Shown here: piece after piece, positions 604 through 50,600 of the stretch
How positions within the stretch are numbered: the first letter of the stretch is position 1
Layout: each line of letters starts with the position of its first letter
Assembly (NCBI GenBank): GCA_019096065.1
Contig: JAGUCH010000005.1
Coordinates: forward strand, 7,254,001-7,318,000
Direction of reading: 5' to 3'
Length of the DNA: 64,000 nucleotides
Source of the DNA: Paracyclopina nana
Lineage: Eukaryota; Arthropoda; Copepoda; Cyclopoida; Cyclopettidae
Notes under the pieces: model-generated
What the model was told of the DNA's origin: nothing
Seen by the model: only the letters and a program-made list of their open reading frames with translations
Databases searched by the model: none
Translations under genes and position numbers: made by a program

Positions 604-769
604 AGCAAACTCATAGCAAACGTGGGGCCTGTTCACCTGCTTATTATGGCCGTTATTTTGGCCAGGACTGCATACCCAACCTTCAAATACTCCCAAAACA
701 AGATCATACAAGAATACATAATTAGTGAACAAAGCATTATTCATAAAGATTTGATGCATATAAACAATC

Positions 770-3640
770 TGACCAATCTAAACAATCTGAACATTCTGAA
801 CAATCTGAACAATCCGAACATTCTGAACAATCTGAACATTCTGAACAATCCGAACAATCTGAACAATCCGAACAATCTGAACAATCTGAACATTCTGCAC
901 AATCCGAACATTCTGAACAATCCGAACAATCTGAACAATCTGAACATTCTGAACAATCTGCACAATCCGAACATTCTGAACAATCCGAACATTCTGAACA
1001 ATCTGAACAATCCGAACATTCTGAACAATCTGAACATTCTGAACAATCTGAACAATCTGAACAATCCGAACAATCTGAACAATCTGAACATTCTGCACAT
1101 TCTGCACAATCCGAACATTCTGAACAATCCAAACAATCTGAACAATCTGAACATTATGAACAATATGCACAATCCGAACAATCTGAACAATCTGAACATT
1201 CTGAACAATCCAAACATTCTGAACAATCCGAACAATCTGAACAATCTGCACAATCCGAACATTCTGAACAATCCGAACAATCCGAACAATCTGAACAATC
1301 TGAACAATCTGAACAATCTGAACAATCCGAACATTCTGAACAATCCGAACATTCTGAACAATCTGCACAATCCGAACATTCTGAACAATCCGAACATTCT
1401 GAACAATCCGAACATTCTGAACAATCTGAACATTCTGAACAATCTGAACAATCCGAACATTCTGAACAATCTGAACATTCTGCACAATCCGAACAATCTG
1501 AACAATCTGAACATTCTGAACAATCTGAACATTCTGAACAATCCAAACATTCTGAACAATCTGAACAATCTGCACAATCCGAACATTCTGAACAATCCGA
1601 ACAATCCGAACAATCTGAACAATCTGAACAATCCAAACATTCTGAACAATCCGAACATTCTGAACTATCTGAACATTCTGCACAATCCGAACATTCTGAA
1701 CAATCCGAACATTCTGAACAATCCGAACAATCTGAACAATCCGAACATTCTGAACAATCCGAACAATCCGAACAATCTGAACAATCTGAACAATCCGAAC
1801 ATTCTGAACAATCCGAACATTCTGAACAATCTGCACAATCCGAACATTCTGAACAATCCGAACATTCTGAACAATCTGAACATTCTGCACAATCCGAACA
1901 ATCCGAACAATCTGAACAATCTGAACATTCTGAACAATCTGAACATTCTGAACAATCCAAACATTCTGAACAATCCGAACAATCTGAACAATCTGCACAA
2001 TCCGAACATTCTGAACAATCCGAACAATCCGAACAATCTGAACAATCTGAACAATCCAAACATTCTGAACTATCTGAACATTCTGCACAATCCAAACATT
2101 CTGAACAATCCGAACAATCTGAACAATCTGAACTATCCGAACATTCTGAACAATCCAAACATTCTGAACAATCCGAACAATCTGAACAATCTGAACAATC
2201 TGAACAATCTGCACAATCCGAACATTCTGAACAATCCGAACATTCTGAACAATCTGAACATTTTGCACAATCCGAACATTCTGAATAATCCAAACAATCC
2301 GAACAATCTGAACAATATGCACAATCTGAACATTCTGAACTATCTGAACATTCTGCACAATCCGAACATTCTGAACAATCCGAACAATCTGAACAATCTG
2401 AACAATCCGAACATTCTGAACAATCTGAACATTCTGCACATTCTGCACAATCCGAACATTCTGAACAATCCAAACAATCTGAACAATTTGAACATTATGA
2501 ACAATATGCACAATCAGAACAATCCGAACAATCTGAACATTCTGAACAATCCAAACATTCTGAACAATCCGAACAATCTGAACAATCTGCACAATCCGAA
2601 CATTCTGAACAATCCGAACAATCCGAACAATCCGAACAATCTGAACAATCTGAACAATCCGAACATTCTGAACAATCCGAACATTCTGAACAATCTGCAC
2701 AATCCGAACATTCTGAACAATCCGAACATTCTGAACAATCTGAACAATCCGAACAATCTGAACAATCCGAACAATCTGAACAATCCGAACATTATGAATA
2801 ATCCGAACAATCCGAACAATCCGAACAATATGAACAATACGCACAATCTGAACATTCTGAACAATCCAAACAATCCAAACAATCCGAACAATCTGAACTA
2901 TCCGAACATTCTAAATAATCCGAACAATCTGAACAATCTGAACACTCCAAACAATCCGAACAATCTGAACATTCTGAACAATCTGAACAAACTGAACAAT
3001 CCAAACATTCTGAACAATCCAAACAATCTGAACAATCCGAACAATCAGAACAATCCGAACATTCTGAATAATCTGAACAATCCAAACAATCTGAACAATA
3101 CACACAATCTGAACATTCTGAACATTCTGAACAATCCAAACAATCCGAACAATCTGAACAATCCGAACATTTTGAATAATCCGAACAATCCGAACAATCT
3201 GAACAATACTCACAATCTGAACATTCTGAACATTCTGAACAATCTGAACAATACGCACAATCTGAACATTCTGAACAATCCGAACAATCTGAACAATCCG
3301 AACAATCCGAACAATCCGAACAATCCGAACAATACGCACAATCTGAACATTCTGAACAATCCAAACAATACGCACAATCTGAACAATCCGAACAATCTGA
3401 ACAATCCAAACAATATGAACAATCCGAACATTCTGAATAATCTGAACAATCCGAACATTCTGAATAATCTGAACAATCCAAACAATATGAACAATACGCA
3501 CAATCTGAACAATCCGAACAATCTGAACAATCCGAACATTAAGAATAATCTGAACAATCAAAACAAACTGAATAATGCAAGTAATCCAAACAAACTGAAC
3601 AATCCCAACATTTTGAACAATCCATATAATCTAAAGATTT
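770..3640. repeat. Left arm of FB1: 9-bp minisatellite (AACAATCTG/AACAATCCG/AACATTCTG)
   Basis: About 2.9 kb of nine-base units of the form (A/C)ACA(A/T)TC(T/C)G. Because the unit is a multiple of three and lacks stops, all frames stay open for long stretches, up to about 1,000 codons of Asn-Asn-Leu/Pro type. I treat these as artefacts, not proteins. Units diverge most at the inner, loop-proximal end (2800-3640). Confidence 0.95.
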
Positions 3641-4587
3641 TTTTGCAATTGTGAACAACCAACTGTTTGATGGGGGTTTCTTCAGAACTAGAAGATTTTT
3701 GACTTTGTTTATCTAGTTTATTTTAATTTTTTTTAGTTTTGCACTTTTCAGCTCAGAGATGGCGCTGCTGTTGCAGGCAAAATGTGCTTTTCTACTCACA
3801 AAATTTTTCATAAAATAAGAAATGTGTACAATACTCAAATATTAAGATTGCCTTTTGCATTTTTTAATTGGTTGAAAAATGACTTGTTTGGAGAGAATTT
3901 CGTAAATTAGGTTTTTCAAAAGCATTTGCACTAAAAGGACAGAAGTAAAATTAAAAGATTTTTTTGCAATTGTGAACAACCAACAGTTTGATGGGGGTTT
4001 CTTCAAAAATAGAAGATTTTTGACTTTGTTTATCAATTTTTTTTAGTTTTGCACTTTTCAGCTCAGAGATGGCGCTGCTGTTGTAGGCAAAATGTGCTTT
4101 TCTACTCACAAAATTTTTCATAAAATAAGAAATGTGTACAATGCTCAAATATTAAGATTGCCTTTTTCATTTTTTAATTGGTTGAAAAATGACTTGTTTG
4201 GAGAGAATTTCGTAAATTAGGTTTTTCAAAAGCAATTGCACTAAAAGGACAGAAGTAAAATTAAAAGATTTTTTTGCAATTGTGAATAACCAACTATTTG
4301 ATAGGGGTTTCTTCAAAAATAGAAGATTTTTGGCTTTGTTTTTCTATTTTTTTTTAGTTTTGCACTTTTCAGCTCAGAGATGGCGCTGCTGTTGCAGGCA
4401 AAATGTGCTTTTCTACGCACAAAATTTTTCATAAAATAAGAAATGTGTACAATACTCAAATATTAAGATTGCCTTTTGCATTTTTTAATTGGTTGAAAAA
4501 TGACTTGTTTGGAGAGAATTTCGTAAATTAGGTTTTTCAAAAGCAATTGCACTAAAAGGACAGAAGTAAATTTAAAAGATTTTTTTG
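3641..4587. repeat. Loop of FB1: three tandem ~315-bp units
   Basis: The landmark GCAATTGTGAA/TAACCAACT occurs at 3645, 3966 and 4276, and a final GCAATTG at 4587 runs straight into the right minisatellite arm. Periods are 321, 310 and 311 bp. Each unit contains CAGAGATGGCGCTGCTGTTG, a CTCF-like core (see findings). Open frames in it are short and unconvincing. Confidence 0.85.
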
Positions 4588-7500
4588 CAATTGTTCAGAT
4601 TGTTCGGATTGTTCAGATTATTCGGATTGTTCGGATTGTTCAGATTGTTCAGAATGTTCGGATTGTTCGGATTGTTCAGAATGTTCGGATTTTTCGGATT
4701 TTTCGGATTGTTCAGATAGTTCCGATTGTTCGGATTTTTCGGATAGTTCAGATAGTTCCGATTCTTTGGATTGTTCAGATTTTTAGGATTGTTCAGATTG
4801 TTTGGATTATTCAGAATGTTCAGATTGTTTGGATTGTTCAGATTGTTCGGATTGTTCGGATTGTTAGGATTGTTTGGATTGTTCAGATTGTTTTGATTGT
4901 TTAGATTGTTCGGATTATTTGGATTGTTAGGATTGTTCAGATTGTTCGGATTGTTCAGATTGTTCAGATTGTTTGGATTGTTCGGATTGTTCGGATTGTT
5001 CAGATTGTTTGGATGGTTTGGATTGTTCAGATTGTTCAGAATGTTCAGATTGTTCGGATTGTGTGTATTGTTCAGATTGTTTGGATTGTTCGGATTGTTC
5101 AGAATGTTCAGATTGTTCGGATTGTCAGAATGTTCAGATTGTTCGGATTGTTCAGAATGTTTGGATTGTTCAGAATGTTCAGATTGTTCAGATTATTCAG
5201 ATTGTTCAGATTGTTCGGATTGTTTAGAATGTTCAGATTGTTCGGATTGTTCGGATTGTTCAGATTGTTCGGATTGTTCAGAATGTTCAGATTGTTTAGA
5301 TTATTCAGATTGTTCAGATTGTTCGGATTGTTCAGAATGTTCAGAATGTTCAGAATGTTCAGAATGTTCAGATTGTTCAGAATGTTCGGATTGTTCAGAT
5401 TGTTCGGATTGTTCGGATTGTTCAGAATGTTCGGATTGTTCAGATTTTTAGGATTGTTCAGATTGTTTGGATTATTCAGAATGTTCAGATTGTTCAGATT
5501 GTTCGGATTGTTCGGATTGTTTGGATTGTTCAGATTGTTTTGATTGTTTAGATTGTTCGGATTATTTGGATTGTTAGGATTGTTCAGATTGTTCGGATTG
5601 TTCAGATTGTTCAGATTGTTTGGATTGTTCGGATTGTTCAGATTGTTCGGATGGTTTGGATTGTTCAGATTGTTCAGAATGTTCAGATTGTTCGGATTGT
5701 GTGTATTGTTCAGATTGTTTGGATTGTTCGGATTGTTCAGAATGTTCAGATTGTTCGGATTGTCAGAATGTTCAGATTGTTCGGATTGTTCAGAATGTTT
5801 GGATTGTTCAGAATGTTTGGATTGTTCAGATTATTCAGATTGTTCAGATTGTTCGGATTGTTCAGAATGTTCAGATTGTTCGGATTGTTCGGATTGTTCA
5901 GATTGTTCGGATTGTTTAGAATGTTCAGATTGTTTAGATTATTCAGATTGTTCAGATTGTTCGGATTGTTCAGAATGTTCAGATTGTTCGGATTGTTCAG
6001 ATTGTTCGGATTGTTCAGAATGTTCAGAATGTTCAGAATGTTCAGAATGTTCAGATTGTTCAGAATGTTCGGATTGTTCGGATTGTCCAGAATGTACAGA
6101 TTGTTCGGATTGTTCGAATTGTTCAGAATGTTCAGATTGTTCGGATTGTTCAGAATGTTCAGATTGTTCGGATTGTTCGGATTGTTTGGATTGTTCAGAA
6201 TGTTCGGATTGTTCGGATTGTCCAGAATGTACAGATTGTTCGGATTGTTCAGAATGTTCGGATTGTTCAGAATGTTCAGATTGTTTAGATTATTCAGATT
6301 GTTCAGATTGTTCGGATTGTTCGGATTGTCTAGAATGTACAGATTGTTCAGATTGTTTGGATTGTTCAGATTGTTCGGATTGTTCAGAATGTTCAGATTG
6401 TTCGGATTGTTCGGATTGTTTGGATTGTTCAGAATGTTCGGATTGTTCGGATTGTCCAGAATGTACAGATTGTTCGGATTGTTTGGATTGTTCAGAATGT
6501 TCGGATTGTTCAGAATGTTCAGATTGTTTAGATTATTCAGATTGTTCAGATTGTTCGGATTGTTCAGAATGTTCAGATTGTTCGGATTGTTCAGATTGTT
6601 CGGATTGTTTAGAATGTTCAGATTGTTTAGATTATTCAGATTGTTCAGATTGTTCGGATTGTTCAGAATGTTCAGATTGTTCGGATTGTTCAGATTGTTC
6701 GGATTGTTCAGAATGTTCAGAATGTTCAGAATGTTCAGATTGTTCAGAATGTTCGGATTGTTCGGATTGTCCAGAATGTACAGATTGTTCGGATTGTTCG
6801 AATTGTTCAGAATGTTCAGATTGTTCGGATTGTTCAGAATGTTCAGATTGTTCGGATTGTTCGGATTGTTTGGATTGTTCAGAATGTTCGGATTGTTCGG
6901 ATTGTCCAGAATGTACAGATTGTTCGGATTGTTCAGAATGTTCGGATTGTTCAGAATGTTCAGATTGTTTAGATTATTCAGATTGTTCAGATTGTTCGGA
7001 TTGTTCGGATTGTCTAGAATGTACAGATTGTTCAGATTGTTCAGATTGTTCGGATTGCTCAGATTGTTCGGATTGTTCAGAATGTTCAGATTGTTCGGAT
7101 TGTTCGGATTGTTTGGATTGTTCAGAATGTTCGGATTGTTCGGATTGTCCAGAATGTACAGATTGTTCGGATTGTTCGGATTGTTCAGAATGTTCGGATT
7201 GTTCAGAATGTTCAGATTGTTTAGATTATTCAGATTGTTCAGATTGTTCGGATTGTTCAGAATGTTCAGATTGTTCGGATTGTTCAGATTGTTCGGATTG
7301 TTCAGAATGTTCAGAATGTTCAGATTGTTCAGAATGTTCGGATTGTTCGGATTGTCCATAATGTACAGATTGTTCGGATTGTTCGAATTGTTCAGAATGT
7401 TCAGATTGTTCGGATTGTTCAGAATGTTCAGATTGTTCGGATTGTTCAGATTGTTCGGATTGTTGGGATTGTTCGGATTGTTCAGAATGTTCGGATTGTT

Positions 7501-8010
7501 CAGATTGTTCAGAATGTTCAGATTGTTCGGATTGTTGGGATTGTTCGGATTGTTCAGAATGTTCGGATTGTTCGGATTGTCCAGAATGTACAGATTGTTC
7601 GGATTGTTCGGATTGTTCAGAATGTTCGGATTGTTCAGAATGTTCAGATTGTTCAGATTATTCAGATTGTCAGAATGTTCAGATTGTTCGGATTGTTCAG
7701 AATGTTCGGATTGTTCAGAATGTTCAGATTGTTCAGAATGTTCAGATTGTTCAGATTGTTCGGATTGTTCAGAATGTTCAGATTGTTCGGATTGTTCGGA
7801 TTGTTCAGAATGTTTGGATTGTTCAGAATGTTCAGATTGTTCAGATTATTCAGATTATTCAGATTGTTCAGATTGTTCGGATTGTTCAGAATGTTCAGAT
7901 TGTTCGGATTGTTCAGATTGTTCGGATTGTTCAGAATGTTCAGAATGTTCAGATTGTTCAGAATGTTCGGATTGTGCAGAATGTTCAGATTGTTCAGATT
8001 GTTTTTATGT
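4588..8010. repeat. Right arm of FB1: 9-bp minisatellite in inverted orientation, with higher-order repeats
   Basis: Units CAGATTGTT, CGGATTGTT and CAGAATGTT are the complements of the left-arm units. A higher-order period is visible: a block near 4897 recurs at 5544 (647 bp), and a CCAGAATGTACAG block recurs at about 6090, 6771 and 7358 (as CCATAATG). Long open frames of Ser-Glu-Cys/Ser-Asp-Cys or Leu-Phe-Arg type are artefacts of period 9. Confidence 0.93.
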
Positions 8011-8339
8011 GCATCAAATCTTTATGAATAATGTTTTGATTACTTATGTTCTGTTAATGTGGTCTTGTATGATCTTGTTTTGGGAGTATTTGAAGGTTGG
8101 GTATGCAGTCCTGGCCGTTATTTTGGCAAAATATTGGAGAGAAATACTGAGAAACTGAGAATTTTTATATTGGTGTAGGATGGCTTTTGGTACCAATACA
8201 CTGATTCTGAAGTCAAAATCTGAAAAATGATTTTACTAATACCAGATATTTGCAAATTTCATCATAATATCGCGCGTTATTTTGCTGATAATAATGCAGG
8301 TGAACAGGGCCGTGATATTTCCACTTTTGCAGCCGCCAG

Positions 8340-8830
8340 TAGTGATGGAACGAGCCGGAAATTTTCAGCTTGATCAAGCTTCAAGCTTTTAGAAATGTGT
8401 TCGAGCGATCCCAAGCTTTTGAAAATAATTATCAAGCTTTTTCAAGCTCAAAATTTCACATTTCAAGCTTTTTTCAAGCTTCTCACTTTTTTAGTATTTT
8501 AACATAAAAAATGGCAATTAGTCACCAGATTTGACAAAATTACCACAAAAAACGCAATAAATTACAGAAAAAGATTTAACTTAGATTTTAGTATTTCACT
8601 CCCTCACGTAATTGTTAATTTTAAAATCAGCCCTTTTTTGTTTTGATTAAAAATGGATAAAGTTTTGAAATTTGGTGTCAAGCTTTTTCAAGCTTTGCAT
8701 ATTTTGGGTTTCAAGCTTTTTCAAGCTTTTCAAAATTTGGTTCGAGCGATCCCAAGCTTTTTGCTTATGTAGCTCAAGCTGGGTTTTAGCTTCAAGCTTT
8801 CAAGCCAAGCTGAAACTCGTTCCATCACTA
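8340..8830. mobile_element. Non-autonomous hAT-like transposon full of CAAGCTT motifs
   Basis: Termini TAGTGATGGAACGAG and CTCGTTCCATCACTA are perfect inverted repeats. They are flanked by an 8-bp duplication GCCGCCAG (8332-8339 and 8831-8838), the size typical of hAT elements, and the TAGTGATGG terminus is also hAT-like. The 491-bp body has no coding frame but carries dozens of short CAAGCTT/TTCAAGC motifs at both sides, also as GTTCGAGCGATCCCAAGC. The homologous region at about 25470-25490 (opposite strand) lacks this insert. Confidence 0.9.
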
Positions 8831-8838
8831 GCCGCCAG

Positions 8839-9262
8839 TTCTTAATGAAAAGCTCTATGTAGTACGTCTTACATAAGGCTGCCGATTTATTCGTCTATTC
8901 TATGCCAAAATTCGAAAAATGCTCCAATTTTGGAGCTCTTTACAGTTTTGGAAATGGGTGATCAAATGGAACACTTTTTATTAGTAAATCATTCAAGCAA
9001 CTCAGCAAGAAGTCTCCGCAAAACTCAGCAGTTGGGCTGCTATTAAGTAACTTTGGCGCGCGATATCTCTGGTTCTAGACCAGATATTTGGCTCCAATTT
9101 GATTCTATGAAGTCAGGGCAACCTCCTCTACAAGGTTTTCAAGTGTCATAGACCGTAGACCGACTTTAATTTGATCGCCCGAAATTTGACGCGGACCGTT
9201 TTTCGCGGAAAATTCCACTCTAGAATGCAATAAAGTCTCCAAATTCATGAAAAAGTCCAAGA
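8839..9262. repeat. Internal segment shared by foldback elements
   Basis: This stretch is an inverted copy of about 25025-25475, which lies inside foldback element FB4. A short part (CATAAGGCTGCCGATTTATT) also forms the centre of FB3 near 32740. It contains no convincing gene. It seems to be the loop region of the element whose right arm follows at 9263-10424. Confidence 0.8.
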
Positions 9263-10424
9263 AAACAGGCAAACACGGCGAACACGGCCGAACACAGCGA
9301 ACACGGCCGAACACAGCGAACACGGCCGAACACAGTGAACACGGGCAAACACAGCGAACACGGCCGAACACAGCGAACACTGCCGAACACAGCGAACACG
9401 GCCGAACACAGCGAACACGGCCGAACACAGAGAACACAGCAGAACCCAGAGAACACGGCAAAACACCGCGAACACGGCCGAACACAGCGAATACGGCCGA
9501 ACACAGCGAACACGGCCGAACACGGCCGAACACAGCGAACACAGCGAACACGGCCGAACACAGCGAACACGGCCGAACACAGCGAACACGGCCGAACACA
9601 GCGAACACGGCCGAACACAGCGAACACGGCCGAACACAGCGAACACGGCGAACACGGCCGAACACGGCCGAACACAGCGAACACGGCCGAACACAGCGAA
9701 CACGGCCGAACACAGCGAACACGGCCGAACACAGCGAACACGGCGAACACGGCCGAACACGGCCGAACACAGCGAACACGGCCGAACACAGCGAACACGG
9801 CCGAACACAGCGAACACGGCGAACACGGCCGAACACGGCCGAACACAGCGAACACGGCCGAACACAGCGAACACGGCCGAACACAGCGAACACGGCCGAA
9901 CACAGCGAACACGGCGAACACGGCCGAACACGGCCGAACACAGCGAACACGGCCGAACACAGCGAACACGGCCGAACACAGCGAACACGGCCGAACACAG
10001 CGAACACGGCCGAACACAGCGAACACGGCCGAACACAGCGAACACGGCGAACACGGCCGAACACGGCCGAACACAGCGAACACGGCCGAACACAGCGAAC
10101 ACGGCCGAACACAGCGAACACGGCCGAACACGACCGAACACAGCAAACATGGCCGAACACAGTGAACACGGCCGAACACAGCGAACACGGCCGAACACAG
10201 CAAACACGGCCGAACACAGCGAACACGGCCGAACACAGCCGAACACAGCAAACATGGCCGAACACAGCGAACACGGCCGAACACAGCAAACACAGCGAAC
10301 ACGGCCGAACACAGCAAACACGGCCGAACACAGCGAACACAGCGAACATGGGCGAACTCGGACGGACACAGCGAAAAATTCTAAGTTTTGCTTGCATTTG
10401 ATCCCTGCCTATGCAGTCGCGGCC
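9263..10424. mobile_element. Right half of foldback transposon FB2 with CGAACACGG minisatellite arm
   Basis: From 9275 to 10370 the sequence is a 9/10-bp alternating minisatellite (CGAACACGG, CCGAACACAG). It ends in a unique tail finishing with CCTATGCAGTCGCGGCC at 10424, the same terminus as the right end of FB3 at 33013. The partner left end (GGCCGCGACTGCATAGG) is not in this window upstream of here, so the element is either truncated or extends past position 1. It is inserted in a SINE-like sequence; the duplication would be ACTTTCTG. Open frames of up to 495 codons are artefacts of the array. Confidence 0.85.
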
Positions 10425-10645
10425 ACTTTCTGAGGTTCGAATTTGGGTAGTTCCTCTCTTTTTTGGAATTTGGATAAGTTCCATGGAATATGAGGGACAT
10501 CCCTCAAATGATTCCAGGGCCATTAAGTGTATTTGAATATCCCCAAACAGCTTAGAAAGAACTGTGATATGAGAGCTGAGTCGGATCTGCAAACTGAATT
10601 ATAAAGCGAGTAAATCATATTACAGTATACACAAAAGTAACCTTT
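10425..10645 (+). mobile_element. SINE-like repeat S2, 5' part removed by FB2
   Basis: Begins within a tRNA-type B box (GAGGTTCGAATTT) and continues into a tail homologous to 22600-22820 (AGTTCCATGG.ATATGAGGG, then CTGTGATAT.AGAGCTGAGTC). The A-box half is missing because FB2 ends immediately upstream. Confidence 0.7.
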
Positions 10646-23708: not shown

Positions 23709-23884
23709 GGGGGGCGGGCCGAAGGCCCGCCCCCCACATTTCGCTGTGACCTACGTCAGGATCCAATTTCCAGACAGGAAACTGGGCAGTGGCCAGATAA
23801 CCAGCGCACAGAAACCCCGAAATCACACAAAGGCACACAGCAGTCTCATTAATTATAGAAAGTGGCTTATCATGTGCTTTATTA

Positions 23885-28300: not shown

Positions 28301-28309
28301 AGGAAGATG

Positions 28310-29108: not shown

Positions 29109-29390
29109 AGCCCTTGGTTGCAAATCAAGGTAGTTGCACAGATTACTTTTTTCCAAAGCAAGCCCCTGGCAGCATGCCAAGGTAGTTACTTGGATTACTT
29201 TTTTCCAAAGCAAGCCCCTGGTTGCAAATCAAGGTAGTTACTTGGATTACTTTTTTCCAAAGCAAGCCCTTGGTTGCAAATCAAGGTAGTTACTTGGATT
29301 ACTTTTTTCCAAAGCAAGCCCTTGGTTGCAAATCAAGGTAGTTACTTGGATTACTTTTTTCCAAAGCAAGCCCCTGGTCGCGAATCTAGG
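29109..29390. repeat. 52-bp tandem repeat, about 5.5 copies
   Basis: AGCCC(T/C)TGG.TGCAAATCAAGGTAGTTACTTGGATTAC recurs at 29109, 29161, 29213, 29265, 29317 and 29369, exactly 52 bp apart. It lies in the non-gag part of the retroelement. Confidence 0.93.
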
Positions 29391-29543
29391 CATTTGCTCA
29401 AACTAGAATATGCCTTGGCTTGCGACCAAAACAGATGTAGGAACCTGTTGTTCCTGTATTTTCTGTGGGGAGAACTTGTTTTGAGGCATGGGCCTTTGCA
29501 GCGGCCATTTTCGGTGTATACTTTGGGGCATTTTGGGGCACTT

Positions 29544-30251: not shown

Positions 30252-30277
30252 TGAACCTTTCTCATTAGGGCTGTTCT

Positions 30278-30781
30278 CTAGTTTTTTGAGTCCCTAGCTA
30301 TGTAAGTTTTGCAGTCACTTGTCCTGTGGAACGCCAATTGGCATTTTCCACAGAGTTCAAAGGTGTCTGGTGCTTTGGCATATGGGCAATACGGGTTATC
30401 AGGGCTGCATGTAGACAATGAACACTTAAAGCACCTGTACTCAAAGTGTTTGAGGCATTCCAATGTGAGTGAGGCATACTGAGAACCTTTCCCTAGCCTA
30501 AAAATGGGAAAGTCAATGCCTGGAGAGTCAGAAACTATTTTGCCATCTTCGTAGACAATGTCTGGCTTCTGTCCCCTGTGGGTTTTAGCTTCAATGTTGC
30601 CTTTGTACCTCGAGTTCATGATTGAACGCACAACCACTCTCAAAACATTTTTTATTTTGAATTGTTGACTTGAGTGGCCAAGAGGAAACTTTTCATCCAG
30701 GCGCCGAATTGCTTCCATATAGCCATCCTCTCCAAATTTAATCAACTGCACAGTTTCATGAGCTTCTTTTCCTTTTCTCAA
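30278..30781 (-). CDS. Gag-like protein, C-terminal cysteine-rich part
   Basis: In the same frame as the preceding Gag frame, separated by one TGA and nine sense codons. Ends with a Cys/His-rich stretch: CFKC, CSPDNPYC, CGKC, then H and C before the TAG stop. This could be a nucleic-acid-binding nucleocapsid analogue, though spacing is not the usual C-x2-C-x4-H-x4-C. Either the TGA is read through, or the element has one inactivating stop. The internal ATG at 30781 is not necessarily a start. Confidence 0.55.
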   Translation of the reverse strand: MRKGKEAHETVQLIKFGEDGYMEAIRRLDEKFPLGHSSQQFKIKNVLRVVVRSIMNSRYKGNIEAKTHRGQKPDIVYEDGKIVSDSPGIDFPIFRLGKGSQYASLTLECLKHFEYRCFKCSLSTCSPDNPYCPYAKAPDTFELCGKCQLAFHRTSDCKTYIARDSKN

Positions 30782-30808
30782 CTGAGTTTTTTGTATGTTT
30801 CTTATCAG

Positions 30809-31819
30809 TCACATATCACTTGCCTGCGAGTTCATTGAAGCCACAGATCTGTCATCTTCTCTTGCCTTGGCCATGAAGATTGACTTTGTTGATGACTTCT
30901 TTGGCTTGGTGTTCGAGTTTTTAAGCTCGTCCTTCACCAAGTGGTAGAATTCCATTGTTGTTAGTTTTGGGATTTTGGTTCCATTTCCTTGAATTTTCTT
31001 TAGCTTTTGCTCATTTGTAAGTACCCTTGCCCTACTGTCATCGGGTAGCGAGGAAAGAATTTTCGTCTTAATGAGGTTGAAGACCTCGTCAAAACTGGCT
31101 TCTTGAAAGGCTAGGTGAGCAAGTCGGTGCAGAACCCTGACTTCCTCATCAAAGTCTTCAAAAGTAAAATTAAATTTATAAAATCGGTCTGCTCTTGTGT
31201 GGGACAATTGGGGTACCGCATGCGTGATGCACAAGTCCTCAAACGCTTTTTCAAGGCTTGACCTTTTGGAAACAGTAACTATATAATCATATAGTTCTTT
31301 TGACATTTTTCTGCGCAATATCTTCAGGATCGCCTGCTCATTCAGGCCGTCCACTTTTTGGATTGAGCTGATTTCCTGGAGAAAGGAAAGCAGCTCTTCT
31401 CCCTCGGTTCCAGTGAACCGATTTTTGAAAATTCCGTCTAGTTCCTGAAGGATATTGTGCAGATCCCTTGTCGAAGTTTCCTTTGCTAAACTAAAATCTA
31501 GGCTGGGGACTTCCTCATCAAATTGCACAGTTAGGTTTAAGAGTGTCTTAACATTGCCCGCCTGCCTATCCGTTTGTTTGATGCTGATTTCCCGCAACTT
31601 GGAATAGCTGGAGCAATTTTTCATCATTAATTTTGCTTGTGCTTTCTCTTCCTCTGTTGCCTCAGCTTTCAGACAAACATTTATGGCACGCGCGTGCATG
31701 TTAGTGATAGGGAGGTAAGCATCTCCTATCTCTACAGCATCCTCGTAGTGGTCTATTCCAGAAGCTCCACTATTTGCTCTGCTGCGAGGAGGAAATGCTT
31801 TCTCATTTTCACGTGACAT
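30809..31819 (-). CDS. Gag-like protein, N-terminal part (336 codons)
   Basis: Starts at ATG 31819, about 85 bases after the primer site, as expected for gag. The product is hydrophilic and largely helical in appearance, with a charged, Lys/Ser-rich end (TKPKKSSTKSIFMAKARED). There is no Cys-His knuckle in this part. It ends at TGA 30811-30809 followed by CTG; the same frame then continues openly for 176 further codons (next feature). Gag assignment rests on position in the LTR element and on general character, not on a recognised domain, so the exact clade (Ty3, BEL/Pao or Copia) is open. Confidence 0.65.
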   Translation of the reverse strand: MSRENEKAFPPRSRANSGASGIDHYEDAVEIGDAYLPITNMHARAINVCLKAEATEEEKAQAKLMMKNCSSYSKLREISIKQTDRQAGNVKTLLNLTVQFDEEVPSLDFSLAKETSTRDLHNILQELDGIFKNRFTGTEGEELLSFLQEISSIQKVDGLNEQAILKILRRKMSKELYDYIVTVSKRSSLEKAFEDLCITHAVPQLSHTRADRFYKFNFTFEDFDEEVRVLHRLAHLAFQEASFDEVFNLIKTKILSSLPDDSRARVLTNEQKLKKIQGNGTKIPKLTTMEFYHLVKDELKNSNTKPKKSSTKSIFMAKAREDDRSVASMNSQASDM

Positions 31820-31903
31820 GATGGTGGTTGAGAAAGGAAATTTAGGGTGTGGCAGGGTGGGGTTTTATGAGGAATACAAAAGGCAGCCGTTCAAAAGTTA
31901 ATT

Positions 31904-31917
31904 TGTCACGGTCGCCA
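31904..31917 (-). promoter_or_regulatory. Primer-binding site, probable tRNA-Arg
   Basis: TGGCGACCGTGACA on the - strand begins 2 bases inside the 5' LTR. It is complementary to a tRNA 3' end ...GTCACGGTCG-CCA, which from memory matches insect-type tRNA-Arg(UCG), with acceptor stem GACCGTG. Position and initial TGG are as expected for LTR elements. Confidence 0.75.
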
Positions 31918-31919
31918 CT

Positions 31920-32337
31920 TGTATAGAAAAACAGGGAAGGTGATGCTGGTAAAACTACTAATCTACACTAGAAGTACTAGATACTTAAAGCATGCTAAAG
32001 TAGTAGAAATCCTTACCCTTTATGATTGCAGGCAGAGCAGTCCCAAGCTCTTATTTGAAGGCTGAACCTTTTGTAGTTCCTCAGTTGATCCACCCCATCA
32101 TTCTGATCCTTGGCCCAGCCTTGGGCCAAGATCTACCCAAGAAGCTTTGCCTTTCTGTATACTCTAATTTTGGTAGACTAGGAATTGTTCTATTCCAAGG
32201 TTGGAGAAAGGATGATCACAACTTCACAACTGGAACTTCACAACTGGCCTCTTATGGGCCTCTTTCTGGCCTCTTTTAGGCCTTTCTCAAAGAGAGCGAG
32301 TATATAGCGAGGGAGGGCACATTTTCATTATTATACA
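31920..32337 (-). repeat. 5' LTR of the retroelement
   Basis: 418 bp, begins and ends with the inverted TGTATA/TATACA. Followed (on -) by 2 bases and the primer-binding site. Contains a TATATA near its end at about 32300. An 85-codon frame inside it occurs in both LTRs and is not considered a gene. Confidence 0.9.
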
Positions 32338-32965
32338 GTTCACCGTGTTCGGTGTGTTCGCCCGTGTTCGCCGTGTTTGGTGTGTTCGCCGTGTTTGCTG
32401 TGTTCGCCGTGTTTGCAGTGTACGCCGTGTTCGCCCGTGTTCAGTGTGTTCGCCCGAGTTTGGTGTGTTCGCCCGTGTTCGCTGTGGTTGCTGTGTTTGC
32501 TGTGTTTGCCGTGTTCACTGTGTACGCCGTGTTCGCCGTGTTCGCCGTGTTTGCTGTGTTTGCCGTGTTCGCCGTGGTCGCTGTGTTTGCTGTGTTCGCC
32601 GTGTTCGCTGTGTACGCCGTGTTCGGCCGTGTTCGATGTGTTCGCCCGTGTTTGGTGTGTTCGCCCGTGTTTGGTGTGTTCGCCCGTGTTCGCTGTGTTT
32701 GCTGTGTTTGCTGTGTGTTTGCTCGATGTAGTACATAGTACATAAGGCTGCCGATTTATTCGTCACAGCGAACACGGCCAAACACAGCCGAACACAGCGA
32801 ACACAGCGAACACGGCCGAACGCGGCCGAACACGGCGAACACGGTCAAACACAGCGAACACGGCCGAACACAGCGAACACGGCCGAACACAGCAAACACG
32901 GCCAAAAACAGCGAACACGGCGGAACACAGCGAACATGGGCGAACTCGGACGGACACAGCGAAAA
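32338..32965. repeat. Inverted minisatellite arms of FB3
   Basis: 32338-32725 carries GTGTTCGCC/TGTTTGCTG-type units; 32763-32960 carries the complement (CAGCGAACACGGCC). Between them is a 40-bp non-repetitive centre. The left array also has about 40 bp on the other side of the retroelement (26860-26896). Confidence 0.9.
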
Positions 32966-33013
32966 AATTCTAAGTTTTGCTTGCATTTGATCCCTGCCTA
33001 TGCAGTCGCGGCC

Positions 33014-33416
33014 GAACTTTTTTGCAAGAAGGATTGCAGCTTTTTCATTCAGTAACCTTTACTTATTTTTTGACATTATATATTAGTCAAAATGAATGCT
33101 GTTGCTGTTCTGGCAAACATGTATAGAGAAGACTGGTGTCCTACTCATCTGATAGAAACCCAGACCAGGTCAAACTGTTAACCAGGACAAGGACCAACTG
33201 TTCACCAGGACCAACTGTTCACCGGGGCCAACTGGCATAAAGGACACAGAAACTAACCAATAAGTTTTTAATGACATACGCCATCCATGACCAAAGCTTT
33301 TTGTCTTTGCTCTCCAAAATCTATTTATGTCCTGGTAAACCTTTGTCAGCCATGGCTAACCATGTAGCTCAAGTCAGAAATGGTGACTCAAGTCACTCCT
33401 TCACTGGCTGGTCTGG
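33014..33416. other. Core of FB4, right of FB3
   Basis: Unrecognised sequence with a short imperfect repeat AGGACCAACTGTTCACC at about 33185-33230. No gene supported. Confidence 0.4.
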
Positions 33417-33917
33417 GCGGCCGTACTTGGATCGACTAGGACATACTGTCCCTGGATAGACTACAACAGATCGTCCTTGGATAGACAGACAGAACTCATA
33501 GTCCCTGGATCGATGAGACGGATAGTCCTTGGATCGACTACTATGACTTAGCAGGACCTAGGTCGACTAGAACCAACTGTGCTAGGATAGACTGACATAA
33601 CTGACTGTCCCTGCATCGAAAAACGGATCGTCCTTGGATCGACAGCTAGAACGTACAATACAATGTTAGAATTCAACAAAAACTTTTGTTCCATCCAAGG
33701 ACTGTATGTTCTCATAGTCGATCCAAGGACGATTCGTCTTGTCGATCCAAGTACATTTCGTTTTTCTTGTCTAACCTAATACATTTCAGTCCTGGTCTAT
33801 CCAAGGACTGTGTGTTCTGACAGTCGGTCCACGGATGATCCGTTTTGTCGATGCAAGGCCAGTTCGTTGTAGTCTATCCACGGACGATCCGTTGTCGATC
33901 CAAGGGTAGGAGTCCGC
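33417..33917. mobile_element. Small foldback element FB6 with TTGGATCGAC repeats
   Basis: The left half has repeated CCTTGGATCGAC, the right half its complement GTCGATCCAAGG, around a short centre near 33660. Ends GCGG..(G)TACTTGG and CCAAGGGTAGGAGTCCGC. Flanks TGGTCTGG and TGGGCTGA agree at 6 of 8 positions, a possible decayed 8-bp duplication. Same family as FB5. Confidence 0.65.
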
Positions 33918-34930
33918 TGGGCTGAACTGACTGCACTAGGTCATTAAATCTTAGGAACCCAAGTTAGTCCTTGGTAGTATGTGGTTAACCAAGTCACCAA
34001 ATGGCTTCCAAAGTCAGTTCTTTTTGCTCGAGTGAATTCAAATCAGGCATGGTTATACAATTTAACCTCAACTTAGTATGTTATAGAATAGTAATTCAGC
34101 CCACTCCCAATGCTGCTTCAGGCAGAAAATTATCACTAACTGTTATTCATTAAATAGCATTGCATTGCATTTGGTAGAAATCTATGTATGGATAAACAAT
34201 CATAGCCACATTTAGCTTGAGAGCCCTAAGTCAAGGAAATTTTCAGGGCCTTCTCTGTTGCATGAAAGGCAGCAAAAATCTAAATGTGGCCTAGCTTGTC
34301 TAACAGCTAAAAAGAAATTCAATCAGGGATAAAACAACAGCCTCAAATTTAACATCATTTTTCACAGTTTCTTGTGTGAAAACAGGGGAGCCACATAGGT
34401 AGCAGTGAAATGTGGAGGGCTTTGGTCTAACCTCCAGAAAAATTAGAATGAAAAAAATTGAGTGGGGGCGGGCCTTTTGCCCACTCCCAATAATATGCAT
34501 CAATCAAATTAGCATTGCTGTTTGTGTTTAATGGGATGAAGGTTTAAATCCCCAAGATGATCTATATTATAAGGTGAGCTCATGTCGCAGCTTTACTATA
34601 GCACTGCGTCTGTCTATGCTGTGGCAAGCTTCTAGACGAAATTTTAATAGAGCACTGTGGATTTTGCATCTTCACATTTAAGAATTTAGCCAGATATTGA
34701 CTGAAAATGCCAAATGGGCTTCGAGTTTGATTTTTTTCTGAACATATCTGGTAGCTCAACAGAAAAAGATTAGCCGGCTTGCCAAGAATTTCTCGCAAAA
34801 ATCGCACCCTCGCGCTATGAAGTAAATTACATTAGCGCCCTCTTCACTTAAACGAAAAACTAAAATAGATTGAGTGATTTCAAGTTACTTTTTACCGTCA
34901 ACATTTGCCTTACGATATGGGGCTGTAAAT
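33918..34930. other. Core of FB4: intergenic with one dispersed repeat
   Basis: 34690-34850 is an inverted copy of 20215-20362 (CGCGCTAT..AAGTAAATTA side). A GGGGGCGGGCC-like word near 34465 hints at an H-family remnant. The rest is unrecognised. Confidence 0.45.
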
Positions 34931-34954
34931 CCCATCTTTGGAAAAACAGAAACT

Positions 34955-34999
34955 GCCGCATTCTGCCCAGTGGCCTACGGCCACTGGGCAGAATGCGGC
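34955..34999. repeat. Perfect 21-bp-stem hairpin
   Basis: CCGCATTCTGCCCAGTGGCC, loop TAC, then its exact complement, plus one more G-C pair. It contains CAGTGGCC, reminiscent of the FB4 terminus. Confidence 0.85.
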
Positions 35000-35094
35000 C
35001 AACATACAAAATTTGCTTGGGGTAGAGGCAATCATAAACTTTTGCTCAACTTCAGCTTTTTCATTCATAATGCTGATCAGAGTAGTAAATTTCA

Positions 35095-35310
35095 TGTGTT
35101 GCTTTGGTGGCTCAGTGACAGATTGTCTGATTGCAATGCAGTCAGACCCAGGTTCAAATCCCATAACAGGCAGTTATTTTTCTGGTTTTTTCTGGATTGC
35201 AATTTACTTCCTGGTCGATATCCTGGTTTGGTTTCCTGGTGCAGTTTCCTGGCAAAAAACTGGGGAAAGACATAGGTCACAGCGAAATGTGGAGGGCGGG
35301 CCGAACAAGT
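35095..35310 (+). mobile_element. SINE-like repeat S1 (tRNA-related head, CCTGGTCGATATCCTGG tail)
   Basis: Head with A box GTGGCTCAGTGACAGA and B box AGGTTCAAATCCC. The tail has TTACTTCCTGGTCGATATCC, CAGTTTCCTGG and ends at CATAGGTCACAGCGAAATGTGG plus GGGCGGGCC. Same head-tail order as 43995-44210 and, inverted, at 37674-37805 and 57843-58066. Confidence 0.75.
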
Positions 35311-36689
35311 GGACTTGGAAGTGGACTTACGGACTTGACTTTGATGTACAAAGTTGTAGAGGAGCTCAGCACGACTTCAGAACAGTAAATAGATCCTTCT
35401 TGAGCCACTCCATTGCTGAGATATTGATCGTCAAAGTTTACTACTGCTGAGCCCCCAGAAAAAGTACTGTTTTCTGCTGAGTTTTCTGATTGGGCTGAGA
35501 CTTGGCACAAATGATCTACTAGATGCCATGAGTCAGCACTTCAAAGGATTTGGTGCTGAGCTGCTCAGCAGCAGAGTTATTTAGCCAGATATGCTTAGCA
35601 TATAAACCTGCTCAGCAGAGAACCAGCTGAGCAGTCATAAAATCTGATGACAGTTTCTAATAGCCCATAAGACAGTGATCATTTATCATATCAGTAAAGA
35701 CATTAGATATATCTCATCATTCTACTGAGTTCTGGTGCAAAGGTCTGAAAATGGGGTCAAATGGGAGGCTCAATAACTCAGCTGCTGAGCGCGTTTGGGC
35801 ATATGTTTACTTCGGATTATCTGCTCAAAATGTGACGGAGACCAATTGTACCAAGTTTCAGCTCGATCCGAGCACTTTGAAAAATCGGCCACTTTTTCTA
35901 AGGCTACCCCTGTGGGAAAACTCAACTTTTTCCCAAGTCCTCCGTTGCTGAGATATCGGGGGTCAAAGTATGGAAAACGGGACCTAGAAGGAGCGGTCTC
36001 TCAGAAAATTTCATTAACTAAGACATGATGGGGACATCAAGAACTACTTGCATATCAAATTTCAGCTCTCTAGCTCAACATTTAGAGTTGCTAAGTCAGT
36101 TGTTTACTTTGCTGAGACTCGGTCAAAATGATGTCTGATTTATTTGCAACAACTTTTGCTTCAATGACTTTGCTGTATCTTGTCATTTTTTATTGCTGAG
36201 CCACTTGGCTGAGATGCTGAGACTATTGGCTTCTGGAACCGCGATACAAAATGGCCTAGTCTCTGCGAATCTCTGAATATAACTAGTTGCTTTATTTGAA
36301 GGACCAAGCATATTTATAGACTCAAACAGGGAAGTGTAATGATAAAGGCAGCTTAATGGTGGAAGGGTTGCTATGCGGAATCGAAGGTTGCAAGGAAGTA
36401 GGAAGACGCAATGTGCAAGTCCATTTTGCACATTAAGACTTAGGACACAAGGGTATTTTGGGGTGCTGAGCAACTTTTGCTGCAATAGTTTGTATTGAGT
36501 CACGGTAGGGAAAAGAAGGGCAAAATTGGGCCAATTCCAATGCCCTGTCCAAAAAGTCGAAATTGTCCAAAAAGTCCACTAAGTTTGAAAAGTCAATAGT
36601 CCAAAAAGCCCATTAATTAAAAAGAGCTTCAACGTTTTTTGAGAACAACTGTGAAATCCATGTAGCTGAGAACCAACTTCATACTGATG
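35311..36689. other. CTGAG-rich dispersed repeat, core of FB4 right side
   Basis: Multiple GCTGAG and CTCAGCA words; 35940-36070 is a close relative of 15840-15965 (GAGATATCGGGGGTCAAAGT, GAAAACGGG, CATGATGGGGACATCAAG). No gene supported; frames up to 106 codons lack family features. Confidence 0.55.
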
Positions 36690-37565
36690 ATTGTGAGGAT
36701 TGTGAGGAGTGCACGAGTGTGAGGATTGTGATTATAGCTAATAAATCACAGTGTGAGGATTGTGAGGATTGTGAGGATTGTGAGGATTGTGAGGAGTGTG
36801 AGGATTGTGAGGAGTGTGAGGATTGTGAGGACTGTGAGGACTGTGAGGAGCGTGAGGAGCGTGAGGAGCATGAGGATTGTGAGGAGCGTGAGGACTGTGA
36901 GGAGCGTGAGGAGTGTGAGGAGTGTGAGGATTGTGAGGATTGTGAGGACTGTGAGGATTGTGAGGACTGTGAGGATTGTGAGGACTGTGAGGAGTGTGAG
37001 GAGCGTGAGGAGGTGAGGAGAGTGAGGAGAGTGAGGAGAGTGAGGACTGTGAGGATTATGAGGAGGGTGAGGACTGTGAGGACTGTGAGGAGTGTGAGGA
37101 GTGTGAGGAGGGTGAGGAGTGTTCGGAGTGTGAGGATTGCGAGGAGTGTGAGGACTGTGAGGAGCGTGAGGAGCGTGAGGAGGGTGCGGAGTGTGAGGAT
37201 TGTGAGGATTGTGAGGAGTGTGAGGAGTGTGAGGAATGTGAGGACTGTGAGGACTGTGAGGACTGTGAGGAGCGTGAGGAGAGTGAGGAGCGTGAGGAGC
37301 GTGAGGAGGGTGCGGAGTGTGAGGATTGTGAGGAGTGTGAGGAGTGTGAGGAGTGTGAGGACTGTGAGGACTGTGAGGACTGTGAGGAGCGTGAGGAGCG
37401 TGAGGAGCGTGAGGAGCGTGAGGAGCGTGAGGAACGTGAGGAGAGTGAGGACTGTGAGGAACGTGAGGAGGGTGAGGACTGTGAGGATTGTGAGGATTGA
37501 GAGGAGTGTGAGGACTGTGAGGACTGTGAGGACTGTGAGGACTGTGAGGATTGTGAGGATTCTGC
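36690..37565. repeat. Right arm of FB4: 9-bp minisatellite (GTGAGGACT/GTGAGGAGT)
   Basis: Complement of the left arm at 23885-24625. Frames of Cys-Glu-Asp and Val-Arg-Ser type are artefacts of the 9-bp unit. Confidence 0.93.
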
Positions 37566-37673
37566 TAATAAAGCATATGATAAGCCAGTTTCTATAATTA
37601 ATGAGACTGCTGTGTGCCTTTGTGTGATTTCGGAGTTTCTGTGCGCTGGTTATCTGGCCACTGCCGGAAACTG

Positions 37674-37805: not shown

Positions 37806-37819
37806 TACATAATCATCAA

Positions 37820-49438: not shown

Positions 49439-49452
49439 ATTTTCCGCATTTT
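49439..49452. promoter_or_regulatory. Half of the zinc-finger palindrome upstream of ZF-F
   Basis: ATTTTCCGCATTTT without its complement; instead AGTGTGCGCCACGC follows, the same as at ZF-H. The half-site is preserved in both genes. Confidence 0.45.
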
Positions 49453-49466
49453 AGTGTGCGCCACGC

Positions 49467-50600
49467 GGGCTCCTACCTTTGGATCGACAACGAACCATCT
49501 TTGGATAGACAACAACAGAACATCTTTAGATCGACATAACTTATCATCCTCTGATCGACTGCTGAGACGGATCATCACACGATCAACAAAAATATAGGAT
49601 CCATTGATCGACTATAAAAACGAACTGTCCTTGCGCAGTGGGTCAAAAAGCCGTTTTCCGCCAAATCGCCCGAATTCTCATTTAACCACTAATTTTCGTC
49701 ATCTAATTTGGCTGATTTCTGGACAATTGAAAGAGTCAAAACTGGTTTTAATCGACAGATACAGATTCAAATTTGACTTCAACATCAAACTTTGCCTGAA
49801 AAAGTGTTCAGCAAGGAAAATGGTAGAATAGCTATTTTTGCCCATTTTTGGGGCATCCATAACTTATGATTGGAATCAAGTGTAATTTATCTATGATGAC
49901 TGAGAGGCCAATCAGACCTCATTTAATGATTATTTATCAAAATTGGCTGCGGAAATTTGCGGACTTGGGAGCTCTGAATGTCTGCTTTTAGCTTACGGCC
50001 CTATGAAAATTGATTCCAACGATTTCGCGAGTTTTTTTTCCCGTGCGCGTCAAGAAGGCATTTTGAGCCTCTGTGCCTTGGTTAGACACAACGGATCATC
50101 CTTGGGTACAAGATCACACCAGACTTTAGTTGATTGGACCGGACTGTCCCTAGATCGACTGGAACAGACTGTCATTGCATCGACTTGGTTTGATATACAT
50201 CAAAAAGTGCATATTACCAGTCTACCAAAGGATGACACAGTGTATTGATCCAGAGACAGTCAATTCTAGTAGTCGATCCAGGGACAGAGTGTCAAAACAG
50301 TCTATCAAAGGATGACCCGATGTGTCGATCTAAGGACAGTCAATTCTAGAAGTCGATCCAGGGGCAGAGTGTCAAAACAGTCTATCAAAGGATGACCCAA
50401 TGTGTCGATCTAAGTACAGTCAATTCTAGAAGTCGATCCAGGGACAGTTCGTTTCAGTCGATCCAGGGACAATGCAGGATAGCTGTCTACCCAAGGATGA
50501 TCAGCATCATCGATCTAGGAATGGTGCGTTCTGCCAGTTGATTCATGGATGATCTCTCAGAGTCGATCCAAGGACCACACAGGTCCAGTCGATCCAAGGA
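49467..50600. mobile_element. Foldback transposon FB5 with TTGGATCGAC arms, upstream of ZF-F
   Basis: Flanked by an exact 8-bp duplication CGCCACGC (49459-49466, 50601-50608). The unoccupied equivalent is upstream of ZF-H at about 53570 (GTGTGCGTCACGCTATTTA). Left arm: repeated TTGGATCGAC/TTTAGATCGAC; right arm: repeated GTCGATCCAGGGACAG/GTCGATCCAAGG. Ends GGGCTCCTACCTTTGGATCG and, inverted, CGGGAGGCTGTCCTTGGATC. The unique centre (about 49640-50080) has no recognised gene. Confidence 0.85.

What the first reader, a model, noticed from the sequence alone, without database searches (positions are those of the whole stretch)
660..50600. A set of foldback transposons whose arms are built from 9-bp minisatellites
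FB1 (660-8116), FB3 (26779-33013), FB4 (23785-37665), FB5 (49467-50600), and the half element FB2 and smaller FB6, share one plan: inverted unique ends of 20-125 bp, then minisatellite arms that are complementary between the two ends, then a loop, with 8-bp target duplications (GTTATTTT, GAACTTTT, GGAAACTG, CGCCACGC). FB1, FB2 and FB3 have related termini (GGCC..GACTGCATA), while their minisatellite units differ completely. That implies the arrays are gained or replaced while the ends are kept. Drosophila FB elements also have repetitive arms, but with different ends and 9-bp duplications. I know of no described family with this exact combination. No transposase is visible.
Basis: partly seen in the sequence, partly recalled or inferred. 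Interest (0 to 1): 0.9.

Follow-up and report, generated by a model that had tools for sequence, protein, structure and literature searches.

The report
Jumping DNA with tandem-repeat arms
This animal genome carries many copies of non-coding jumping elements whose inverted arms, and in some families also their cores, are made of tandem repeats; in one pair of subfamilies the ends and core are nearly the same while both arms are almost completely different, which makes this a new and unusually clear variant of the known 'foldback' transposons.

Summary
FB1, FB3 and FB4 are inverted-end elements flanked by 8-bp target duplications. Genome-wide, 48 of 61 inverted pairs with these ends carry a perfect 8-bp duplication, against 2 of 3540 mismatched flank pairs; 2 more carry 9 bp. 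Two insertions have exact empty-site counterparts. Corrections: FB2 is not half an element (its left end lies 789 bp outside the window; FB1 sits inside it); FB3's loop is an LTR retrotransposon; FB3 sits inside FB4; FB5 has a 9-bp duplication and GGG ends.

FB3-type and two FB4 subfamilies share loop satellites (about 160 and 170 bp). Those two FB4 subfamilies share ends (95-96%) and a 3.8-kb loop (up to 92%) but almost nothing in either arm (133-bp versus 110-bp units). Three FB1 copies carry the same nested FB3 end at three sites, so composites have moved.

Best reading: non-autonomous, probably Mutator-like foldback transposons moved in trans. Three Mutator-like loci in this genome also have terminal arrays and 8-9-bp duplications, and one FB4 copy holds a Mutator transposase fragment. 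No cognate transposase was found. Drosophila Tetris and Galileo and nematode Tm1 are close precedents: new variant of a known kind.

The parts
660..8116 (.). FB1 element: TIR 660-762, left arm of AACAATCTG-type 9-bp units 763-3622, 310-bp x3 loop about 3623-4593, right arm about 4594-8003, TIR to 8116
652..659 (.). 8-bp target duplication GTTATTTT, left (right copy 8117-8124)
1..10424 (.). FB2: right part of a complete FB3-type element whose left end is at C5:7253212, 789 bp left of window base 1; FB1 is nested in it
31..601 (+). S160 satellite monomers in the FB2 loop
8833..9260 (+). non-coding block shared with FB4-type loops (window 25033-25461; C6:5508269 element)
9261..10375 (.). FB2 right arm, 19-bp array
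10425..10432 (.). FB2 right 8-bp duplication ACTTTCTG (left copy outside the window)
23785..37665 (.). FB4 element; arms of TCCTCACAC-type 9-bp units at 23891-24621 and 36685-37559; duplication GGAAACTG at 23777-23784 and 37666-37673
26779..33013 (.). FB3 element, nested in FB4; duplication GAACTTTT at 26771-26778 and 33014-33021; arrays 32338-32716 and inverted 32769-32945
26897..32337 (-). LTR retrotransposon inserted in FB3 (identical 418-bp LTRs, duplication GTTC; minus strand taken from its ORFs); not part of FB3
49467..50609 (.). FB5: 9-bp duplication GCGCCACGC, ends GGGCTCC../GGGAGGC.., about 25-bp terminal units; Mutator-like type, distinct from FB1-FB4

Best explanation
FB1-FB4 are copies of several related families of non-autonomous cut-and-paste DNA transposons of foldback type, most likely of the Mutator-like (MULE) superfamily. 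A transposase made elsewhere is inferred to recognise the GGC...ATA ends plus repeated sites in the arms, to excise the element and to insert it with a staggered cut that leaves 8-bp (rarely 9-bp) duplications. The arms are tandem arrays that expand, contract and can be replaced, while ends and loops persist; left and right arms stay of one type, possibly because one arm can be copied from the other. Loops are non-coding; in FB3-type elements and two FB4 subfamilies they hold satellites shared across different ends. Shown: ends, duplications, empty sites, nesting, movement of composites, shared loops, and different arms between like ends and like loops. Inferred: superfamily, transposase recognition of arm units, and how arms are replaced.
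For: 48 of 61 pairs with perfect 8-bp duplications, control 2/3540; 32/32 empty-site matches in satellite monomers for two insertions. Three FB1 copies (C1:5968101, C2:11415949, C4:3433738) hold the same FB3 end at the same site CTATCAGG with 97.6-99.3% identity over 721 bp, at three sites with three different duplications. FB4b and FB4c share ends (bases 1-51, 96%; 7617-7672, 95%) and loop (2073-5901, up to 92%), while the arms between match only in two pieces under 40 bp. Three MULE loci in the same genome have terminal arrays of short units and duplications of 9 bp (L068), 8 or 9 bp (L069) and 8 bp (L136); with the right flank shifted, 0 of 50 shifts give such a match for each of the three and for FB5; all three carry the MULE domain. 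FB5 has a 9-bp duplication and an end resembling L068 (GGGCTCC). One FB4c element (C2:11811601-11813298) contains 53 aa 41.5% identical to the N-terminal part of the L136 MULE protein (E 7e-9; E 2.7e-7 genome-wide). In print: MULE duplications are 8-11 bp and the Spectre clade has 8 bp (PMC6446971, passages read); tandem repeats in Galileo arms bind its transposase's DNA-binding domain (PMC3688188, abstract read).
Against: No MULE gene was found between FB1, FB3 or FB4 ends: 0 of 6 MULE-domain matches, 1 of 27 matches to the L136 protein (the fragment above) and 0 of 14 to the L068 protein lie in a known pair. The fragment is found in 1 of 14 element bodies held, and its relatives are scattered at 47 genome places, 2 of them in known pairs, so it may be a captured piece. 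Most MULE groups seen in the passages are listed with 9-bp duplications; these families make 8. FB1-FB4 ends begin GGC, whereas L068 and FB5 begin GGG. Arm-to-arm copying has mixed support: within-element sharing exceeds between-element sharing for 133-bp arms (0.39 versus 0.14) and FB4a 9-bp arms (0.20 versus 0.06), but not for 110-bp arms (0.16 versus 0.22) or FB1 (0.04 versus 0.10).
Confidence: 0.6

Rival explanations
1. The same non-autonomous foldback transposons, but mobilised by a non-MULE transposase that makes 8-bp duplications (Merlin, hAT, P, KDZ or an undescribed group).
For: 8-bp duplications dominate (48 of 61). P-type elements with 8-bp duplications exist in this genome.
Against: The two P elements read have unrelated ends (CAGAGACTTA), and none of the 11 P-domain matches lies in a known FB pair. 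hAT, Merlin and KDZ domain searches found nothing, though for hAT and KDZ the control genomes also stayed silent. Duplication composition (A at position 2, T at 7) is opposite to the recalled hAT pattern nTnnnnAn.
Confidence: 0.3
2. The arms are not replaced: FB4b and FB4c are old lineages whose arms simply diverged faster than ends and loops, helped by concerted evolution of tandem repeats.
For: 133- and 110-bp units share a core of about 40 bp in the same orientation (score 34, best of 300 shuffles 32). FB3a and FB3b ends are 40/45 alike, and their 9-bp units look alike by eye, though not beyond shuffles (75 of 300 as good).
Against: Ends are 95-96% and the loop up to 92% identical, single S160 monomers up to 98%, while the arms match only in two pieces under 40 bp at E 1e-5. 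Divergence alone would need far faster change in both arms at once.
Confidence: 0.3
3. Large inverted repeats made by recombination, segmental duplication or assembly joins rather than transposition.
For: 11 of 61 pairs lack a perfect 8- or 9-bp duplication (one of them 7/8, two being alternative pairings); some appear to lie in segmental duplications (C2:194816 and 255757; C8:17430 and 134679).
Against: Perfect duplications in 48 of 61 versus 2 of 3540 in the control, exact empty sites, and one nested composite at three sites.
Confidence: 0.02

Closest known systems
Tetris / DAIBAM of Drosophila virilis group (PMC4079207; abstract and two sections read)
   Same: Non-autonomous foldback element, tandem repeats inside long inverted repeats, variable non-coding middle, 8-10-bp duplications, transposase unknown, link to satellite DNA, suggested Mutator superfamily.
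   Different: Units of about 220 bp and only three structurally complete copies reported. Here there are tens of copies, several arm types (9-, 110-, 133-bp), and loop satellites shared across families with different ends.
Tm1 Mutator/Foldback elements of root-knot nematodes (PMC3169594; passages read)
   Same: Composite inverted repeats with an internally repeated short motif (about 14 bp), non-autonomous members, duplications of 8-10 bp.
   Different: Mostly 9-bp duplications and some members encode a putative transposase; here 8 bp, with no coding member found.
Galileo of Drosophila (PMC3573991 abstract and passages; PMC3688188 abstract)
   Same: Foldback-like, independent expansion of arm repeats, chimeric copies with mismatched duplications, binding sites for the transposase's THAP domain in the arm repeats.
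   Different: P superfamily with 7-bp duplications; the two P elements read in this genome have unrelated ends.
Rehavkus (MULE outgroup; PMC6446971 passages read)
   Same: Animal MULE relative with a minisatellite next to a terminal repeat.
   Different: 9-bp duplications and a PHD-finger transposase; the minisatellite is described before the 3' end only.
Sea-urchin TU foldback elements (recalled; PMC4079207 only cites a sea-urchin foldback)
   Different: Not compared by sequence here; its ends and loop come from no call.

Membership tests
Cut-and-paste TIR transposon (class II) | Inverted ends with fixed-length target duplication | tested here: met
   48 of 61 pairs 8/8, control 2/3540
Cut-and-paste TIR transposon (class II) | Precise insertion into a known empty site | tested here: met
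   32/32 matches in S170 monomers for L020/21 and L041/42
Foldback-type element | Long inverted arms made of tandem repeats, non-coding middle | tested here: met
Mutator-like (MULE) superfamily | MULE (PF10551) transposase encoded by the family | tested here: not met
   6 genome matches, none inside known pairs; only a 53-aa fragment in one FB4c copy. For a non-autonomous element this does not exclude the superfamily; long copies were not read through.
Mutator-like (MULE) superfamily | 8-11-bp target duplication | tested here: met
   8 bp, rarely 9; range from PMC6446971
Mutator-like (MULE) superfamily | Ends shared with a MULE-encoding element | tested here: inconclusive
   Architecture shared with L068, L069 and L136; end sequence resembles L068 only for FB5
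P superfamily | Ends shared with a P-transposase element | tested here: not met
   P ends CAGAGACTTA.. in both loci read
hAT | hAT dimerisation domain present in the genome | tested here: inconclusive
   0 matches, but no control genome rang either
Merlin | IS1595-type transposase in the genome | tested here: not met
   0 matches; one control genome did ring
KDZ / Zisupton | KDZ transposase in the genome | tested here: inconclusive
   0 matches, no control genome rang
Rehavkus | PHD-finger transposase and 9-bp duplication | tested here: inconclusive
   FB1-FB4 duplications are mostly 8 bp; no Rehavkus transposase model was searched

The most novel reading that the evidence does not exclude
The arms are interchangeable modules: within one transposon lineage both arms can be replaced together by a nearly unrelated tandem array while ends and satellite loop stay, because the two arms pair (foldback) during repair or replication and one templates the other. 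The same elements carry and spread two satellite families, so the transposon acts as a vehicle that makes, swaps and disperses tandem repeats.
Probability: 0.3. Interest if true: 0.7.

Novelty: new variant of a known kind. Interest (0 to 1): 0.52.

Why it matters
How short tandem repeats become parts of transposons, and how satellites spread, is hard to study when few complete copies exist (Tetris: three). Here one 92-Mb assembly in 10 contigs offers tens of copies, some ordered by nesting, in which ends, arms and loops can be compared separately. It makes two questions directly testable: whether arm units are transposase-binding sites, and whether one arm templates the other.

Tried and rejected
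Rejected: FB2 as a half element (its left end was found outside the window). A real loop in FB3 (it is an LTR retrotransposon). The P elements read as the mobilising family (different ends). Strict mirror copying of arms: the longest stretch shared by the two arms is within the range of 20 unit-shuffled controls for FB1 (64, best shuffle 68) and window FB4 (44, 44), but beyond it for C6:5508269 (153, 69), C1:15384382 (128, 73), C2:696533 (123, 72) and C7:804290 (71, 56). A transposase near the ends: ORFs of 75 aa or more with under 30% tandem repeat in the inner 1.5 kb of the 65 terminal loci were listed and read by eye; no transposase was recognised, and the MULE fragment in L063/L064, which is in that list, was overlooked until.

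Led nowhere: naming the organism by its zinc-finger proteins (120 of 938 hits listed, identities 26-48%; named hits mostly arthropods, some vertebrates). KDZ, hAT and Merlin domain searches. A literature query on internal tandem repeats (0 papers). The reversed-sequence control (swamped by tandem arrays). Arm units of FB1 against FB3a and window FB4 units gave borderline matches only (3 and 4 of 300 shuffles as good); the 110-bp unit matches neither FB4a 9-bp unit (112 and 299 of 300) and the 133-bp unit does not match the C6-type FB4a unit (169 of 300).
Full report
WHAT IS THERE. The window lies at C5:7254001-7318000 of an unnamed 91.95-Mb genome in 10 contigs, among many C2H2 zinc-finger ORFs. 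A scan for 8-bp direct repeats that bound inverted ends returns FB1, FB3 and FB4 as the only cases with 22/22 identical ends (its reversed-sequence control was swamped by tandem arrays and says nothing). FB1 runs 660-8116, FB3 26779-33013, FB4 23785-37665. The arms are tandem arrays in opposite orientation: AACAATCTG-type in FB1, GTTCGCCGT-type in FB3, TCCTCACAC-type in FB4.

CORRECTIONS. FB2's left end is at C5:7253212, 789 bp left of window base 1, and both sides carry ACTTTCTG; FB1 is therefore nested in FB2. FB3 is nested in FB4. FB3's loop is an LTR retrotransposon (26897-32337) with 418/418 identical LTRs and a 4-bp duplication GTTC. FB5 ends at 50609 with a 9-bp duplication GCGCCACGC and GGG ends.

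CENSUS. Ends were searched in the genome: GGCCAGGACTGCATA up to 1 mismatch, 15 forward and 13 reverse against 0 and 0 for the reversed pattern; GGCCNNGACTGCATA up to 1 mismatch, 77 and 79 against 5 and 4; GGCAGTGGCCAGATA up to 2 mismatches, 137 and 115 against 3 and 11. I paired inverted ends by hand and fetched missing flanks. Of 61 pairs with both flanks, 48 have a perfect 8-bp duplication (FB1 type 8 of 11, FB3 type 14 of 20, FB4 type 26 of 30), 1 has 7/8, and 2 have a perfect 9-bp duplication. The other 10 include 2 alternative pairings that reuse an end, two pairs that share flanks with each other (C2:194816 and 255757) and two FB1-type pairs on C8 that are mirror images of each other. 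Comparing the left flank of one element with the right flank of another gives 2 of 3540 exact matches. Two further rows that combined ends of different families were set aside before the count. The lists are cut after about 100 places: exact ends are listed in full, mismatched ones are not.

EMPTY SITES AND MOVEMENT. Two elements sit in S170 satellite monomers; the joined flanks with one duplication match unoccupied monomers 32/32. Three FB1 copies on C1, C2 and C4 hold the same FB3 end at the same target CTATCAGG, with 97.6-99.3% identity over 721 bp, yet have three different duplications, ATTTATGC, AAGAATTC and CAATTTGC. So the composite moved after the nesting. Only one FB3 end was recognised in each.

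MODULES. C2:7813369-7821040 is end, 133-bp x13 arm, 160-bp x14.5 satellite, 175-bp x8.6 satellite, 133-bp x11 arm, end; C8:1347948-1354924 has the same plan with 110/140-bp arms. The FB4a copy C6:5508269 has 9-bp-based arms and a 4.2-kb non-tandem loop; the FB1 copy C7:804290 has a loop of about 0.9 kb with 311-bp repeats. Of 14 bodies tested, 6 carry S160 (FB3a C7:5679382 and C2:194816; FB4b and FB4c, 4) and 5 of these also S170; none of the 4 FB1 bodies, the 3 FB4a bodies or window FB3 carries either. So the satellites are shared by FB3-type and FB4b/c elements, whose ends differ. Another non-coding block is shared by FB2, FB3-type and FB4-type loops. A genome search with an FB4c monomer of S160 gave 493 matches (40 of 109 candidate stretches scored); the listed rows (about 150, checked by eye) all fall within known FB4-type pairs, including a run of at least 9.3 kb in the 53-kb pair C3:4075315-4128744. 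FB3-type monomers, more distant from that query, are not among the listed rows.

ARM REPLACEMENT. The first 51 bp and last 56 bp of the 133-bp-arm element match the 110-bp-arm element at 95-96%, and its loop 2073-5901 matches at up to 92%. Apart from pieces at 83-119 and 2026-2064, the stretches between do not match at E 1e-5. The two unit types still share a core of about 40 bp with GTCCTCA(C)TGTGCTCA in the same orientation (score 34, best of 300 shuffles 32). The 133-bp unit weakly resembles the window FB4 unit (3 of 300 shuffles as good) but not the C6-type FB4a unit (169 of 300), and the 110-bp unit resembles neither (112 and 299). So replacement may have kept a functional core, but only between those two types is this shown. 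Sharing of 40-45-mers between left and right arms is higher within than between elements for 133-bp and FB4a 9-bp arms but not for 110-bp and FB1 arms, so arm-to-arm copying is only partly supported.

WHICH TRANSPOSASE. Ends share GGCNNNGNCNNNATA (FB1 and FB4 agree at 8 of 15). Pfam searches of the genome: MULE 6 matches, P-type 11, hAT 0, Merlin 0, KDZ 0; none of the MULE or P matches lies in a known pair. Two P elements read have ends CAGAGACTTA. Three MULE loci were resolved: L068 3570-9318 (9-bp GATATACCT, about 29-bp units), L069 4212-6363 (8-bp ATCAGTAT or 9-bp CATCAGTAT, about 24-bp units) and L136 2448-4091 (8-bp GCTGCTAG, about 15-bp units). These duplications came from scans over many boundaries; with the right flank shifted by 15-64 bases, 0 of 50 shifts gave an equally good match in each case, FB5 included. 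A fourth and fifth locus (L137, L138) gave no duplication. Thus some Mutator-like elements of this genome carry terminal arrays and make 8-9-bp duplications. A MULE protein search found one match inside FB4c C2:11811601-11813298 (1 of 27 matches): 53 aa, 41.5% identity, E 7e-9, between S160 pieces. Its relatives are scattered at 47 places, 2 of them in known pairs, so it may be a remnant or a captured piece. The L068 protein gave 14 matches, none in a known pair.

COMPARISON. Tetris (PMC4079207; abstract and two sections read), Tm1 (PMC3169594; passages), Galileo (PMC3573991 abstract and passages; PMC3688188 abstract), and Rehavkus and Spectre (PMC6446971; passages) together cover most single features: repetitive arms, 8-10-bp duplications, unknown transposase, arm dynamics, binding sites in arm repeats, minisatellite near an end. 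Galileo also has copies whose middle comes from another subfamily, the nearest published parallel to the module exchange seen here. TU of sea urchin is recalled, not read. I found no description of ends plus loop kept while both arms differ; searches (listings) are the basis, and they cover open-licence papers only.

VERDICT. A real, multi-copy set of foldback transposons that has moved since it began to nest; new variant of a known kind; superfamily probably Mutator-like but not proven.

Noticed in passing
window 10769-12290, 13555-14517, 16447-17013, 19073-19972, 42904-43776, 45014-46226, 47741-49378, 51742-53490, 54469-55689: Cluster of C2H2 zinc-finger ORFs (VHEGLKPFKCDICDK repeats) on both strands, interleaved with the transposons.
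   Followed up: partly
window 26897-32337: LTR retrotransposon with 418/418 identical LTRs inserted in FB3, i.e. a recent insertion; two ORFs in 30278-31819 on the minus strand have no Pfam match.
   Followed up: partly
window 37675-41724 and 57932-62504: Two copies (pieces 83-94% identical, third fragment 43783-44126) of a long repeat containing 145-bp, 15-bp inverted, 25-bp and 23-bp arrays; FB4 appears to be inserted into a copy of it.
   Followed up: partly
L068 3570-9318, L069 4212-6363, L136 2448-4091: Mutator-like elements with a RING-type C-terminus (L068; weaker in L069) or without (L136), whose termini are inverted arrays of 15-29-bp degenerate units.
   Followed up: yes
L070, L071 (C1:7809000, C5:1228700): P-superfamily elements with ends CAGAGACTTA and 8-bp duplications, each with an internal stop in the transposase frame.
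   Followed up: partly
L049, L050, L051 (C2:177058, 188256, 204869): Three near-identical FB4-type left ends with the same flank GTTATTTT; in at least two, what looks like a kinase gene follows: a local segmental duplication.
   Followed up: no
C8:17430-20493 and C8:134679-137742: Two FB1-type pairs of identical length in mirror orientation near a contig end, without duplications: an inverted segmental duplication.
   Followed up: no
C2:11812466-11812726 and 46 further places: A small protein module like the N-terminus of MULE transposases is scattered in the genome, one copy in the FB3-type pair C9:5997031-6030870.
   Followed up: no
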